In this document: positions 29,970-35,540 of the stretch, in pieces | Layout: each line of letters starts with the position of its first letter | Position numbering within the stretch: the first letter of the stretch is position 1 | From: Actinomycetes bacterium | GTDB lineage: Bacteria > Actinomycetota > Acidimicrobiia > Acidimicrobiales > Palsa-688 | Reading direction: 5' to 3' | NCBI GenBank assembly: GCA_021838445.1 | Contig: JAKCDU010000019.1 | Coordinates: forward strand, 27,504 to 67,070 | DNA length: 39,567 nucleotides | The notes under the pieces: model-generated | Seen by the model: the letters and a program-made list of their open reading frames with translations, nothing else | The model's database searches: none | What the model was told of the DNA's origin: nothing | Made by a program: the position numbers and the translations under genes

Positions 29970-29975
29970 ATGCTA
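29970..29975 (-). promoter_or_regulatory. Predicted -10 box (TAGCAT) for the thioesterase gene
   Basis: TAGCAT with 9 nt to GTG 29960, predicting a 5' UTR of two or three bases. Confidence 0.35.
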
Positions 29976-30024
29976 AGCGCACATCACCCCTGCCGGCCAA
30001 CGCCGACGCCCGGACCAGAGTCGA

Positions 30025-30056
30025 ACCGGGTCCCGGGAGGCCGCTATCGACCCGGT
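30025..30056. repeat. Inverted repeat upstream of the EAL-HDOD gene
   Basis: ACCGGGTC (30025-30032) and GACCCGGT (30049-30056) form a perfect 8-bp stem around 16 nt, within the 243-bp gap before the EAL-HDOD start. It could be an operator or a leader structure; no known riboswitch pattern was recognised. Confidence 0.4.
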
Positions 30057-30203
30057 CCCCCGAGCAGTTGCGGCGCGCCCGGCGGCTCCATCCCGCCGGT
30101 CGCGCCGGAAAAAGCTACGTCTGCGGTCGTTTCCAGCCGACAAGTGGATGAGGCCTCGGAGCAGGCCCCGCCTCAACTGCGAGCTTCTCGAACGCGACCA
30201 ACG

Positions 30204-31481
30204 ATGAGCCAACCCCAACCCAAAGCCGCCGAGGGCGTCGACCCGCCGGACCGCGCCGTGAGGCCGGCGCCCGAGTCCGACCTGCTCCTCGCCCGTCAGC
30301 CCATCTTCGACCGGGACCTGGCCGTCTGGGGCTACGAAGTCCTCTTTCGGGACCGCGCCGGTGAGCGTTACACGGGCGACGCCATGACCGCCGAGGTGCT
30401 GCTGCGGACCGGGCTGGACGTGGGTATGGAATCGCTGGTGGGCCGCAAGCGGGCGTGCATCAACGTCACCCGGGCCTACCTGACCGGCGAGCGGGAGTTC
30501 CCGCTCCCCTACGAGCAGACGGTCCTCGAGATTCACCCGACGGTGGAGCGCAACGCCGATCTGGTCGAAGGCGCCCGGGAGCTGAGCGCCAAGGGCTACA
30601 TGCTCGCGCTGGACAACTACGTGTACCAGCCCGGCGATGAGCCGCTCCTGGAACTGGTCAACATGGTGAAAGTCGACCTCGGCGCGGCCGGTATCCCGAA
30701 GCTCCCAGAGCAGGTCGAGCGCTGCTGCCGCTACGGCGCTCTGCTCGTGGCCGTCAAGGTCGAGACCAAAGAACAGCTCATCGCCTCCAAAGACGCCGGG
30801 TTCAACATGTTCCAGGGTCACTTCCTGTCACGCCCCACCGGCATACCCGGTCAGACCCTCAGTCCCAACCGCATGAGCTGCCTGCGGCTCATCCAGGCCC
30901 TCTCCGACCCCGAGATCCCCTCCTCGGACGTCCAGCGCATCATCGAGACCGACCCGGGCCTCAGCGTGCGTTTCCTGCGCGCCGCCGGCGCCGGGGCGGC
31001 GTCGGGGCTTCGACGGCGGCTGAACTCGATCCGCGAGGGCGTGGTCCTGATGGGCGAGCACCGGATGAAGGCCTGGGTGATGCTCATGCTCCTCGCCGAT
31101 GCCGGGACCGGCGTGCCCGAGCAGTTGGCCATCGCCATGACCCGCGCCCGGCTGTGCGAGCTGATCGCCCGCGACATCCGCCCGGAGCTGGAGCACTCGG
31201 CTTTCACCGTGGGGCTGGTATCGGCGCTGGACCTGCTGATGGGTGTCCCCATCGAGGAGGTCCTCGCCAACCTGAGCCTCACCGAGGAGCTGCGCGCCGC
31301 AGTGACCGAGGGGGCGGGCCGCTTCGGCTACATACTGGGCGACGTCCTGGCGTGGGAGCAGGGGCTGGCCATCCAGCTCAAGTCGGGTCTGTCGGCACCG
31401 AGGCTCAACGAGCTCGGGATCGAGGCGCTGCGCTGGGCCAACTTCGTCTGCGACTCGCTCGAGGACTCCCATCCGGGCTGA
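30204..31481 (+). CDS. EAL-HDOD signalling protein (YuxH-like), EAL site partly degenerate
   Basis: 425 residues from ATG 30204. The EAL-like domain (about 25-225) starts LLLARQPIFDRDLAVWGYEVLFRDRAG and keeps INVTRAYL, VLEIHP, VKVDL, VKVETKEQL and FQGHFLSRP. The canonical DDF is LDNY here, so one metal-binding aspartate is replaced. The C-terminal HDOD domain (about 230-425) includes LIQALSDPEIPSSDVQRIIETDPGLSVRFLRAA. Such proteins usually act as signalling scaffolds or c-di-GMP-linked sensors rather than robust phosphodiesterases. The upstream frame is open but proline/arginine-rich and not convincing as coding. Nothing in the neighbourhood identifies a partner. Confidence 0.9.
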   Translation: MSQPQPKAAEGVDPPDRAVRPAPESDLLLARQPIFDRDLAVWGYEVLFRDRAGERYTGDAMTAEVLLRTGLDVGMESLVGRKRACINVTRAYLTGEREFPLPYEQTVLEIHPTVERNADLVEGARELSAKGYMLALDNYVYQPGDEPLLELVNMVKVDLGAAGIPKLPEQVERCCRYGALLVAVKVETKEQLIASKDAGFNMFQGHFLSRPTGIPGQTLSPNRMSCLRLIQALSDPEIPSSDVQRIIETDPGLSVRFLRAAGAGAASGLRRRLNSIREGVVLMGEHRMKAWVMLMLLADAGTGVPEQLAIAMTRARLCELIARDIRPELEHSAFTVGLVSALDLLMGVPIEEVLANLSLTEELRAAVTEGAGRFGYILGDVLAWEQGLAIQLKSGLSAPRLNELGIEALRWANFVCDSLEDSHPG

Positions 31482-31571: not shown

Positions 31572-32096
31572 TTGACCTGGTTCGACGACCTGCCCGAAGG
31601 ACCGACCGAATGGGACCGGATGCACGCCGCCCATCCCGAGGCGCTGTCGGCCATGGCCCGCCTCTACTTCGCGGCCTGGGAGGACAGCGACCCGGTCCTG
31701 CTCGAGCTGGCCCGTCTGCGCATGGCCACCTTGTTGCGCTTCGACGACGAGCACCGACATCGCAGTCGGGCCGCCCGGGAGGCGGGCCTGAGCGAGGAGA
31801 AGGCCGCCGCCGTCGGGAGTTGGCCCACATCGCCTCTCTTCTCCGATGCCGAGCGCAGCTGTCTGGCCCTGGTCGAGCAGTTCGCCCTCGACGCCTCGGC
31901 CGTCACCGACGAGCAGGTGTCGGCGGTGGCCGCGCATCTCGGCGACGACGGCTGCTACGTGTTCGTCGAAGCGGTATCCGCCATCGAGACGTTCCAGCGC
32001 GCCTGCCTCACGATGGGCATCACCACCACCCCCGGCGTGGACCGTCTGGTCGAGCTCGGGCACCCACGTTCCACCGAGCAGGAGGAAACCTCATGA
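31572..32096 (+). CDS. CMD/AhpD-fold protein lacking the redox cysteines
   Basis: 174 residues. The helical pattern (LLELARLRMATLLRFDDEHRHRSRAAREAGLSEEKAAAVGSWPTSPLFSDAERSCLALVEQFALDASAVTDEQVSAVAAHLGDDGCYVFVEAVSAIETFQRACLTMGI) parallels the carboxymuconolactone decarboxylase/AhpD fold, including the next gene. At the place of the CxxC motif it has DDEHRHRS, so it should lack disulfide chemistry. A GGAGGG ribosome-binding site (31556-31561) precedes the TTG start by 10 nt; an internal ATG at 31620 would lose the N-terminus. Its stop overlaps the next start as ATGA, which suggests the two proteins form a complex. Confidence 0.75.
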   Translation: MTWFDDLPEGPTEWDRMHAAHPEALSAMARLYFAAWEDSDPVLLELARLRMATLLRFDDEHRHRSRAAREAGLSEEKAAAVGSWPTSPLFSDAERSCLALVEQFALDASAVTDEQVSAVAAHLGDDGCYVFVEAVSAIETFQRACLTMGITTTPGVDRLVELGHPRSTEQEETS

Positions 32097-32575
32097 AACC
32101 CCGGATTCAAACCTCGCCGCGCAGTTCGGCGGCCGTTCCCTCGGTGGCTGCGACGCTACGCCCGGCCCGACGGGACCTGCGGCGCACGGCCTCGCAGATG
32201 GGCGAACTGGACCCGGTCACGACCGAGCTGATCCGGATGCGCAACGCCCGTTTCCAGAACTGCAACTATTGAATGAGTGTCCGCAGCGCAGTTGCGCTGC
32301 AGCAGGGTGCCGACGAGGAGCTCCTCGCGTCGGTGGACCACTACGAACAGGCCGACCTCGACGACGCCCACAAGGCGGCCCTCCGGCTGGCTGACGCCTA
32401 TCTGATCTCCCCCGCCGAGATGACCGCCGGGCTCAAAGCCGAGGTGGCCGAACAGCTCAGTCGGGCCCAGGTCGTAGAGCTGGCGGTCCAGCTCATGGGT
32501 TTCAGCAACGACAAGGTGATGGTGGCCCTCGGCTACGACCTCGACGAGGTGGCGGCCGAGCACATCATCATGTGA
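32093..32575 (+). CDS. AhpD-like selenoprotein with C-x-x-U motif (in-frame TGA read as selenocysteine)
   Basis: Reading from ATG 32093 (GGAGG at 32081-32085) gives 59 codons, an in-frame TGA at 32270-32272, then 100 more codons to the stop ending at 32575. The two parts join into one 160-residue CMD/AhpD-fold protein: ELIRMRNARFQNCNY-U-MSVRSAVALQQG. The TGA falls exactly on the second cysteine of the CxxC redox motif (C57, U60). A perfect hairpin at 32283-32300 lies at SECIS distance. The start overlaps the previous gene (ATGA). AhpD-like proteins use this motif for peroxide or disulfide chemistry, and selenoprotein members are known from metagenomes. Selenocysteine insertion is inference; sel genes are not in the window. 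The alternative is two pieces split by a nonsense mutation. Confidence 0.8.
32283..32300 (+). promoter_or_regulatory. Candidate bacterial SECIS hairpin
   Basis: GCAGCGC (32283-32289), loop AGTT (32290-32293), GCGCTGC (32294-32300): a perfect 7-bp stem inside the reading frame. Seventeen nucleotides separate the TGA from the apical loop, and a G lies in the second loop position. Both agree with the general bacterial SECIS layout as I remember it. Confidence 0.7.
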
Positions 32576-32648: not shown

Positions 32649-34319
32649 TCAGGCGGCCGAGCCTTCGAAGGGGACGTCGAAAGAGAACACCCCGCCGTCG
32701 CCGGTGACGAGCCAGTAGCCGCCGCCCGAGGGCTGGGCGGCCATGGCCACGCAGGGGGCTACCAGCGCGACCCCTCCCGTGGACCCGCGGAACGGGGCGT
32801 CGAAGGCGAATATCCCGCCGTCGGCGGCGTCGAGCCAGTAGCCGCCGGTGGACGCGTCGATGGTCATGCCGACCACCGGCTGCACCAGTGGAACACCGCT
32901 GACCGAGCCGAGGAAGCGGGCCGTGCCGTAAGTGAATACACCCCCGTCGGAGGCGACGAAGTAGTAGCCCCCCCCGTCGGGGGAGGCGGCCATGGCGACC
33001 GCCGGGGCGGCCAGTGGGATACCCCCGGTGCTGCCGTAGAAGGGGGCGTCGAAGCTGAACACTCCCCCGTCGCCGCCGAGGAGCCAGTAGCCGCCCGTCG
33101 CCGGGTCGGCGGTCATGCCGACGATCGGCGCCGACAGCTGGTAGCCGTTGGCCCCACCGCGGTAGACGGCGTCACCGAAGGAGTAGACGGCCCCGTCGGC
33201 GGCCACCTCCCAGTAGCCCTCCGAGTCGGCGGTGGCGGCGATACCGACTATCGGAGCTTCCGGCTGCGAGGGTTCACCGAGATACGGTGCGTCACCGAAG
33301 CTCCTCACGGTGCCGTCGCTGCTGGCCACCCAGTACCCGCTGCCGTCGGCCGACGCGGCCATGCCCACCACGGACCGGTTGAACGACCAGGACTGGAACA
33401 GGTCCTGGTCGGGGATCAGGCCCTCCGACGTCACCTCGGCGGCGAAGCGGTCGCGACTGGCGGGGTCATGGAACTCGGAGGTGTTGAGGAAATCGACGAT
33501 GGTGTTGCGGGTGTCGGTGGCCTGGGAGCTCGAACCGGTGTAGGCCGAGAAGTGGGTGGCGCCGGTGATGGCCACGAACACCCGGGACGGGCGGCTCGTG
33601 TTGTAGACCGTCTCGGTGCCGTCGCCGTTGGGTTGCGGGGTGTAGTTGGCGAACTCGTCGGCGGTGCCGACCATGGCCAGGACGGGCCCGTTGTTGACCG
33701 CTGCGAACGTCCCGGGCACCTGCCCCACCGGTGTCACCCCGCTCAACACCACGTAGGCGTTGAACCGGTAGGAGACGAAGCTGGGGTCGAGGGCGAGGGT
33801 CGCCACCACCGATCCACCGTCGGAGTGACCCATGGCGGCCACCTCGGCCCGGTCGATCTGCGACCCGAACGGCCCGTTCTCCTCGTTGGTGAGGGCGTCT
33901 GAAAGGTCGAGCGTGTTGTTGGCCAAATCCTCGCTCGTGGGAACGCCGGGGAAGTAGCTCGAGGTGCCCGGCGAGTCGACCCCGATGACCAGGTAGCCGG
34001 CCGAGGCCACGGCGCGCAGCAGGACGTCATAGTCGGCGACCTGCGCGTACCATCCCGGGGCGAAGACGACCGTGGGCAGTTGACCGGTTGCGCCGGTCGG
34101 CGCGTAGACGACATCGTGGATGGTCCTCGTCGGCAGGTCCGGCTGACCCTGGCGGGCCGGAGTCGGCCGGTCCGACACCGTGAAGGTGTCGTCGGACGCG
34201 GTCACGGCATAGGCGCCGGTGGGTTGCGCCGACTGGGCGGCCACGGCGGCCGCCGGCCACGTCCAAGCCAGAGCCGCGGCCGACACGACGGTCGCCAGGA
34301 TGTTCCGCCAGGATGACAT
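32649..34319 (-). CDS. Secreted alpha/beta hydrolase with six C-terminal GYW/DGG repeats
   Basis: 556 residues from ATG 34319, with a GGTGGAGG ribosome-binding site. An N-terminal signal peptide (VVSAAALAWTWPAAAVAA) directs export. The hydrolase domain has a nucleophile elbow GHSDGG (about 154-159, Ser156), an acidic residue in VGTADEF and a His in GATHFSAY. Its layout resembles secreted PET-hydrolase/cutinase-like or dienelactone-hydrolase-like enzymes. From about residue 307 come six repeats of about 42 residues, each with PIVGMAA...GGYWLV..DGGVFSF-type sequence, probably a beta-propeller-like or stacked-blade module. I associate this repeat with Acidimicrobiia. Substrate unknown; an extracellular ester or polymer is plausible. 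Confidence 0.85.
   Translation of the reverse strand: MSSWRNILATVVSAAALAWTWPAAAVAAQSAQPTGAYAVTASDDTFTVSDRPTPARQGQPDLPTRTIHDVVYAPTGATGQLPTVVFAPGWYAQVADYDVLLRAVASAGYLVIGVDSPGTSSYFPGVPTSEDLANNTLDLSDALTNEENGPFGSQIDRAEVAAMGHSDGGSVVATLALDPSFVSYRFNAYVVLSGVTPVGQVPGTFAAVNNGPVLAMVGTADEFANYTPQPNGDGTETVYNTSRPSRVFVAITGATHFSAYTGSSSQATDTRNTIVDFLNTSEFHDPASRDRFAAEVTSEGLIPDQDLFQSWSFNRSVVGMAASADGSGYWVASSDGTVRSFGDAPYLGEPSQPEAPIVGIAATADSEGYWEVAADGAVYSFGDAVYRGGANGYQLSAPIVGMTADPATGGYWLLGGDGGVFSFDAPFYGSTGGIPLAAPAVAMAASPDGGGYYFVASDGGVFTYGTARFLGSVSGVPLVQPVVGMTIDASTGGYWLDAADGGIFAFDAPFRGSTGGVALVAPCVAMAAQPSGGGYWLVTGDGGVFSFDVPFEGSAA
32652..33401 (-). repeat. Six in-frame repeats of about 42 codons
   Basis: The C-terminal 250 residues of the secreted hydrolase consist of six copies built on (I/V)VGMAA-x5-GGYWLV-xx-DGGVFSF-xx-P-F-x-GS. 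Copies are diverged, so this is an old protein repeat rather than recent DNA duplication. Confidence 0.85.
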
Positions 34320-34481
34320 CGCACCTCCACCGAAACGCTCGGCCCCGCCGAGGTTAGCAACCGCCACCTGGCGATCCGGTGACCGCCTTCCCGTTCCCGC
34401 CGGCGCGCCGGACGCGGGGACCGGGGCCGCCCCACGGGTTAGGCTCTCGACGCCGCCTACGCAACTACGAACGGAACACCA

Positions 34482-35540
34482 ATGGGTAATGCTGTCCGCA
34501 CTGTGCTGCGGGGCGGGTCGACAGGGATCGCCTTGGTGGTCACCGCGGTCATCTCGCTGAGCGCCTGCTCCTCGGGGTCGCACTCGCCTGCTTCGAGCCC
34601 CTCGACCAAGGCCACCACCTCGACGACCGCGCCCGGCGGGACGAGCTCAGGCGGATCCTCCGGCTCGGTCGATACGGCAGTGGTCGCCAACACCGGAATC
34701 ACCGTGACCGGGGCGTTCAACACCACGCCCACGGTCGTCTTCCCGGCGGGCGGGCCCCCCAAGCGACTCGAGGAGCAGACCGTGGTCGCCGGCCAAGGAG
34801 CCACCGTCACGTCGGGCGACACCCTGGTCCTCAACTACCTGGGGGAGATCTGGCCCGTCGCGACGGGCGCCAAACCCAAGGTGTTCGACAGCTCCTACTC
34901 GCGCCACGCCCCCGACGGATTCGTCATCGGAACGGGCGCCGTCATACCCGGCTTCGACAAGACCCTGGTCGGCCAGAAGCTCGGCTCACGTCTGGTCCTC
35001 AGCATCCCGCCGGCCGACGGTTACGGGCCGTCGGGTAACTCGCAGGCCGGGATCGCCGGTACCGACACCCTCGTGTTCGTGGTCGACCTCCTCGCCGACT
35101 ACAAGCCCAACGCGTCGGCCCCAGGCGTGGCCGCCGCTCCGCTGCCCGCCACCGGCTGGCCGCATATCACCAACCCCCCCGGGCAGCCACCCCAGATCAC
35201 AGGTGTGGCGGGGGTACAGGCACCCACTGCCCCGACATCCAAGCTGCTGCTCGACGGCCTAGGGGCCAACATCGACCCGACCAAGACACTGGTTCTGCAA
35301 CTCGTCCAGACCGACATCGCCACCGGCAAGCAGACGCAGTCCACCTGGGGTCATCAGCCCCAGCTGATCAGCGCCCAGACCGTCCTGTCGGTGGCCACCG
35401 CCCTCAACGGCCAGAAGGTCGGAGCCCGCGCCGTCGTACTGCTCCCCGCCAGTCCCGCCCAGCCGGCCACGGCAACGGCCCCGGCGGCCCCCGCCGCCCC
35501 TCCTGAGGTGCTGATACTCGACGTCGTCGGGCAGTTCTGA
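34482..35540 (+). CDS. FKBP-type peptidyl-prolyl isomerase lipoprotein with a second degenerate FKBP-like domain
   Basis: 352 residues. Signal peptide with lipobox ISLSAC (Cys about residue 29) and a Ser/Thr/Gly-rich linker, so it is membrane-anchored outside the cell. The FKBP domain spans roughly 90-208: GDTLVLNYLGEIW, KVFDSSYSR, FVIGTGAVIPGFDKTLVGQKLGSRLVLSIPPADGYGPSG, DTLVFVVDLL. The last 110 residues (DPTKTLVLQLVQTDIATGKQTQSTWG ... NGQKVGARAVVLLPA ... VLILDVVGQF) follow the same strand order without the active-site residues, a likely decayed duplicate. Role: folding of exported proteins. Confidence 0.9.
   Translation: MGNAVRTVLRGGSTGIALVVTAVISLSACSSGSHSPASSPSTKATTSTTAPGGTSSGGSSGSVDTAVVANTGITVTGAFNTTPTVVFPAGGPPKRLEEQTVVAGQGATVTSGDTLVLNYLGEIWPVATGAKPKVFDSSYSRHAPDGFVIGTGAVIPGFDKTLVGQKLGSRLVLSIPPADGYGPSGNSQAGIAGTDTLVFVVDLLADYKPNASAPGVAAAPLPATGWPHITNPPGQPPQITGVAGVQAPTAPTSKLLLDGLGANIDPTKTLVLQLVQTDIATGKQTQSTWGHQPQLISAQTVLSVATALNGQKVGARAVVLLPASPAQPATATAPAAPAAPPEVLILDVVGQF

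What the first reader, a model, noticed from the sequence alone, without database searches (positions are those of the whole stretch)
32093..32575. AhpD-like selenoprotein hidden by an in-frame TGA
Seen directly: two adjacent frames (32093-32272 and 32273-32575) are in the same phase, separated only by TGA, and together give one complete AhpD/CMD-type domain. The TGA occupies the second cysteine position of the family's CxxC site (NCNY-TGA-MSVRS). A perfect 7-bp hairpin with loop AGTT begins 10 nt later, 17 nt from TGA to loop, with a G in the first two loop bases. No ribosome-binding site precedes the ATG that follows the TGA. Known: AhpD-like selenoproteins with CxxU motifs have been reported from metagenomic data. 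Inferred: the TGA encodes selenocysteine in this organism. Standard gene calling splits this gene and loses the redox centre.
Basis: partly seen in the sequence, partly recalled or inferred. Interest (0 to 1): 0.92.

Follow-up and report, generated by a model that had tools for sequence, protein, structure and literature searches.

The report
Selenocysteine AhpD-like enzyme with cysteine-less partner
A gene that standard software would cut in two really encodes one small redox enzyme with the rare amino acid selenocysteine in its active site, and it sits next to a partner gene of the same fold that has lost its active site; the kind of enzyme is known, but this subfamily and its two-gene layout appear undescribed.

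Summary
The observation and the reading both hold. TGA 32270-32272 is in frame inside a 160-residue AhpD/CMD domain and sits at the second position of CxxC (CNYU). The organism's own genome (Acidimicrobiales-like) has tRNA-Sec, selA, selB and selD in one cluster and a second, textbook selenoprotein (formate dehydrogenase, ARIUH). The TGA is kept in relatives 97, 68, 55 and down to about 33% identical, in Actinomycetota, Chloroflexota and alphaproteobacteria; relatives without it have Cys there. TGA-bearing genomes have selA in 28 of 30 cases, the others in 3 of 12. The hairpin is weak evidence alone (z -0.67), but across 22 relatives it covaries strongly (score 0.584; at most 0.186 when slid) and is absent from Cys relatives. 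Most likely a selenol peroxidase or AhpD-type reductant; substrate unknown. CxxU AhpD-like selenoproteins are known since 2005; no curated NCBIfam model claims this one.

The parts
32093..32575 (+). Selenoprotein gene, 160 aa, AhpD/CMD domain, motif C57-N-Y-U60
   Evidence: Translation with TGA=U; PF02627 hit; AlphaFold model pLDDT 82.9, best PDB match P. aeruginosa AhpD PA0269/7xw1
32270..32272 (+). In-frame TGA read as selenocysteine 60
   Evidence: Aligned with Cys in TGA-less relatives; Sec machinery in the genome
32283..32300 (+). Bacterial SECIS hairpin: 7 bp stem, loop AGTT with G at loop position 2, loop 17 nt after the TGA
   Evidence: Covariation in 22 Sec relatives, 92.9% of cells paired, 33 double-change cells versus 9.3 in shuffles; not kept in Cys relatives
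32261..32263 (+). Codon of Cys57, first residue of the CxxU motif
   Evidence: Invariant in alignment A1
32282..32284 (+). Codon of Arg64, invariant where AhpD and PA0269 have the proton-relay His
   Evidence: invariant R64; PMC3141380 gives Glu118/Cys130/His132/Cys133/His137 and Glu36/Cys48/Tyr50/Cys51/His55
31572..32096 (+). Upstream partner gene: Cys-less CMD paralogue, 174 aa, overlapping the selenoprotein gene by ATGA
   Evidence: PF02627 E 4.6e-9; counterpart beside or fused to the Sec/Cys domain in 102 of 108 loci, none with CxxC
32081..32085 (+). Shine-Dalgarno-like GGAGG of the selenoprotein gene
   Evidence: Sequence

Best explanation
The locus is a two-gene operon. The first gene makes a CMD/AhpD-fold protein with no active-site cysteines; the second, overlapping it by ATGA, makes a CMD/AhpD-fold selenoprotein whose UGA codon 60 is decoded as selenocysteine by SelB, tRNA-Sec and the hairpin just downstream (recoding: strongly supported; the stated confidence refers to this). 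Glu45, Cys57, Tyr59 and Sec60 fall on the AhpD catalytic residues (Glu118, Cys130, His132, Cys133), so Sec60 takes the place of the second cysteine of the dyad. Inferred mechanism (about 0.6): the selenol attacks a hydroperoxide or a disulfide, Cys57 resolves the oxidised selenium as a selenenylsulfide, and a cellular thiol reduces it again. Inferred (about 0.6): the two products form a heteromer built like the two halves of sestrin, the Cys-less half serving in assembly, substrate choice or regulation.
For: Sec cluster (tRNA-Sec, selA, selB, selD) in G000 contig C10. Second selenoprotein, formate dehydrogenase with U at the usual site. TGA kept at 97, 68, 55% identity and lower; Cys otherwise. 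selA in 28/30 TGA genomes against 3/12 others, Fisher p 2e-5; the two exceptions are 78 and 83% complete. SECIS covariation score 0.584 against 0.163 shuffled and at most 0.186 slid; mean pairs 6.07 in Sec against 3.32 of 7 in Cys relatives. Amino-acid changes constrained on both sides of the TGA between congeners (pN/pS 0.42 and 0.37). AhpD fold by prediction. Partner separate in 44 and fused in 4 of 54 Sec loci; fused in 41 of 54 Cys loci. A fused relative resembles Sestrin2 over both domains, Z 19.3, 242 residues.
Against: No selenium measurement. The window's hairpin alone is not significant. The AhpD proton-relay His is Arg64 in all 24 aligned relatives, so plain AhpD chemistry may not apply. 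No ahpC sits beside it; the AhpC-type peroxiredoxin is on another contig. Heteromer formation rests on gene fusion and on a model of a fused relative, not on a complex.
Confidence: 0.95

Rival explanations
1. The TGA is a true stop: a pseudogene, or two separate short genes with restart at ATG 32273.
For: TGA is an ordinary stop in this genome (both genes here end in TGA); an ATG follows directly.
Against: Same TGA in dozens of diverged genomes, Cys otherwise; amino-acid constraint on both sides; covarying hairpin; no ribosome-binding site before ATG 32273.
Confidence: 0.02
2. A sequencing or assembly error turned a sense codon into TGA.
For: The window is from a draft genome.
Against: Independent assemblies at 97%, 68% and 55% identity carry the same TGA.
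Confidence: 0.005
3. The UGA is read through as another amino acid (by a suppressor or a reassigned code) and not as Sec.
For: Read-through alone would give a full-length protein.
Against: TGA ends this gene and its partner; the genome has tRNA-Sec and SelB; a hairpin of SECIS form follows; the TGA is exchanged with Cys only.
Confidence: 0.02
4. The protein is a selenoprotein, but works as another kind of CMD-family enzyme (for example a reductive dehalogenase like Bmp8) and not as a peroxidase or AhpD-type reductant.
For: Debrominase Bmp8 is among the best sequence and fold matches; the relay His is Arg.
Against: The best matches are PA0269/AhpD; no neighbour conserved across clades hints at another substrate.
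Confidence: 0.2

Closest known systems
AhpD-like (COG2128/TIGR01926), CMD-domain and 'hypothetical protein 1' (NF041238) selenoproteins, Zhang et al. 2005, PMC1088965; list in PMC13188914
   Same: CxxU motif in a CMD/AhpD domain, Sec at the second position, bacterial SECIS after the UGA
   Different: Scores far below the cut-offs of NF041238 (18.7 of 175), TIGR01926 (22 of 81.8), NF041047 (18.8 of 110) and NF053654 (35.9 of 310); separate Cys-less partner gene
PA0269, AhpD-like protein of Pseudomonas aeruginosa (2O4D, 7XW1)
   Same: Best sequence and fold match; Glu, Cys, Tyr, Cys in register
   Different: Sec for the second Cys; Arg for the relay His; paired with a second gene
Sestrins and their bacterial fused AhpD-like analogues (PMC4674687, PMC11429811)
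   Same: Two AhpD-like halves, one with and one without active-site cysteines; the fused relative aligns with Sestrin2 over both domains. PMC11429811 reports bacterial fused forms with a Cys-less N-terminal and a CxxC C-terminal half
   Different: Here two separate genes; catalytic half second, in sestrin first; Sec; no detectable sequence match of the fused family to sestrin chains

Membership tests
Bacterial selenoprotein | In-frame UGA aligned with Cys in relatives | tested here: met
Bacterial selenoprotein | SECIS hairpin directly after the UGA with a loop G | tested here: met
   not significant from the window sequence alone
Bacterial selenoprotein | selA, selB, selC, selD in the same genome | tested here: met
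Bacterial selenoprotein | Selenium in the product | not testable with these tools
   Needs 75Se or mass spectrometry
CMD/AhpD-like superfamily (PF02627) | Domain score over the curated cut-off | tested here: met
   32.2 bits, cut-off 23
AhpD (as enzyme family with the five-residue relay) | Relay residues Glu, Cys, His/Tyr, Cys, His | tested here: not met
   Glu45, Cys57, Tyr59, Sec60 in place (residue 59 varies in relatives), but Arg64 for His in all 24 relatives. AhpD-like by fold, not shown to be an AhpD
Curated NCBIfam families NF041238, NF041047, NF053654, TIGR01926 | Score over the model's cut-off | tested here: not met
   All far below
Sestrin | Two AhpD-like halves in sestrin arrangement | tested here: inconclusive
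   Fused relative Z 19.3 over both halves; the window pair itself was not modelled together
Sestrin | Sequence homology to sestrins | tested here: not met
   Profile of the fused family finds no sestrin chain in the PDB up to E 10

The most novel reading that the evidence does not exclude
A selenium-dependent, split sestrin-like enzyme: an obligate heteromer of a catalytically dead AhpD-like subunit, which senses or binds a ligand, and a selenocysteine AhpD-like subunit, widespread in uncultured Acidimicrobiales and Chloroflexota, and representing the unfused two-gene stage of the architecture that appears fused in other bacteria and, by analogy, in sestrin.
Probability: 0.3. Interest if true: 0.75.

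Novelty: new member of a known kind. Interest (0 to 1): 0.5.

Why it matters
It adds a well-supported, unmodelled CxxU subfamily of AhpD-like selenoproteins in lineages where gene callers split the gene and lose the active site. The Sec/Cys and split/fused versions across one family give natural pairs for testing what Sec adds and what a catalytically dead AhpD-like partner does, a question also open for sestrins.

Tried and rejected
No neighbour other than the partner gene is conserved across clades, so context gives no substrate. The window hairpin against shuffles is not significant, so the case does not rest on it. Two mycobacterial plasmid relatives of moderate identity were not followed. 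A sequence link of the fused family to sestrins was not found. Literature on selenoproteins in Acidimicrobiia: nothing relevant in the held library. Direction of Sec/Cys change: the tree has 125 columns and weak deep forks, so it is left open, except that L020 (Cys, separate partner, no selA) beside the window clade looks like a loss of Sec.

Full report
Observation. The two frames 32093-32272 and 32273-32575 are one frame interrupted by TGA 32270-32272. Read through, the 160 residues match Pfam CMD PF02627 across the TGA. The hairpin is as described: stem 32283-32289/32294-32300, loop AGTT, 17 nt between TGA and loop. GGAGG stands 7 nt before ATG 32093; nothing like it stands before ATG 32273. 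By itself the hairpin is ordinary: z -0.67 against shuffles, and about 3-4% of synonymous recodings of the same peptide give seven pairs.

Machinery. The genome that holds the window (3.99 Mb, 117 contigs, 96% complete) has a tRNA-Sec over the Rfam cut-off (63.7 bits, cut-off 47; ARAGORN agrees), and next to it selA (416 bits, cut-off 268), selB (279, cut-off 242) and selD (329, cut-off 125). It also has a formate dehydrogenase alpha chain with an in-frame TGA at the known Sec site, ARIUHSSTVPGL. So Sec is in use in this organism independently of the finding.

Conservation. The two other genomes of the genus carry the same TGA at 97 and 68% identity. In a sample of 298 genomes of the order 40 have a relative; those read with a TGA have it at the same position, CxxU, and those read without it have CxxC. 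A scan of one genome per species gave 77 loci, among them Chloroflexota, Defluviicoccus and Actinomycetota MAGs with TGA, and cultured Rhodococcus, Nocardioides, Amycolatopsis, Frankia and Solirubrobacter with Cys. Some of these are the same contigs as in the first search. selA is found in 28 of 30 TGA genomes and 3 of 12 others (Fisher p 2e-5); the two TGA genomes without it are 78 and 83% complete. Genomes are related, so the p value overstates independence. For two of the twelve (G266, G291) the motif was not read, only the absence of a stop; likewise ten TGA matches of the table were not read base by base.

SECIS. In 22 distinct in-register Sec sequences the stem forms standard pairs in 92.9% of cells, with 33 double-change cells (shuffles 9.3, sd 2.8) and a covariation score of 0.584 (shuffles 0.163; slid at most 0.186). 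The second loop base is G in all of these. Chloroflexota relatives have a stem shifted by one base. Over all distinct loci, Sec sequences average 6.07 of 7 pairs, Cys sequences 3.32. Changes between the window and its 68% relative show amino-acid constraint on both sides of the TGA (pN/pS 0.42 and 0.37).

Protein. The AlphaFold model (pLDDT 82.9) is an all-helical AhpD fold, best matched by P. aeruginosa AhpD/PA0269 (TM 0.83 by target); the sequence profile finds the same proteins first (E 1e-13). By PMC3141380 the AhpD relay is Glu118, Cys130, His132, Cys133, His137; in the window Glu45, Cys57, Tyr59, Sec60 and Arg64 hold these places (same spacing). Arg64 is invariant in the 24 aligned relatives, Sec or Cys, a consistent departure from AhpD.

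Partner. The upstream gene 31572-32096 is also a CMD protein (E 4.6e-9) and its stop overlaps the start of the selenoprotein gene (ATGA). A profile of it finds a counterpart directly upstream in 102 of 108 loci: separate in 44 and fused in 4 of 54 Sec loci; separate in 13 and fused in 41 of 54 Cys loci; none has CxxC. Some fused hits are weak (E up to 4e-3), a few loci are duplicates, and both traits are clustered on the tree, four changes each, so these counts are not independent. No other neighbour is conserved across clades. A model of the fused Amycolatopsis relative (pLDDT 84.5, pTM 0.86) aligns with human Sestrin2 over both halves (Z 19.3, rmsd 3.0, 242 residues), above single AhpD chains (Z 14). 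The 2024 review PMC11429811 already describes bacterial fused AhpD-like proteins with a Cys-less first half and notes their likeness to sestrin; the unfused, Sec-bearing form is what this locus adds. There is no sequence match to sestrins.

Known or new. CxxU AhpD-like and CMD selenoproteins were reported from the Sargasso Sea in 2005 (PMC1088965) and are listed in a 2026 review (PMC13188914). None of the curated NCBIfam models reaches its cut-off on the window protein or its relatives. Verdict: real selenoprotein, new member of a known kind, with a two-gene layout that is undescribed as far as the held library shows.

Shown: sequence, conservation, covariation, machinery, partner conservation. 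Inferred: Sec insertion in this protein (very likely), selenol-based peroxidase or disulfide-reductant chemistry, heteromer with the partner. Unknown: substrate, electron donor, role of the Cys-less partner.

Noticed in passing
L010 (G000 contig C10, 93000-106000): Compact cluster of selA, selB and selD with the tRNA-Sec gene beside it on the opposite strand.
   Followed up: yes
L127 (G000 C88:34728-36131, minus strand): Formate dehydrogenase alpha chain with in-frame TGA at the canonical Sec site (ARIUHSSTVPGL), a second selenoprotein of this organism.
   Followed up: partly
window 29970-31481: HDOD protein with a degenerate EAL-like part directly upstream of the pair, same strand, 90 bases from the partner gene; HDOD over the Pfam cut-off, EAL below it.
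   Followed up: no
window 32649-34583, minus strand: Large protein with a PETase-like/chlorophyllase-like hydrolase domain (PF12740 E 3.9e-11) and a long repetitive tail; kept beside the pair in the nearest relatives only.
   Followed up: partly
L118-L122: Defluviicoccus MAGs carry a distant CxxU relative (CRYU) without a detectable partner gene.
   Followed up: no
L022, L025: Sec-type relatives in which the Cys-less domain and the CxxU domain lie in one open frame (fused).
   Followed up: partly
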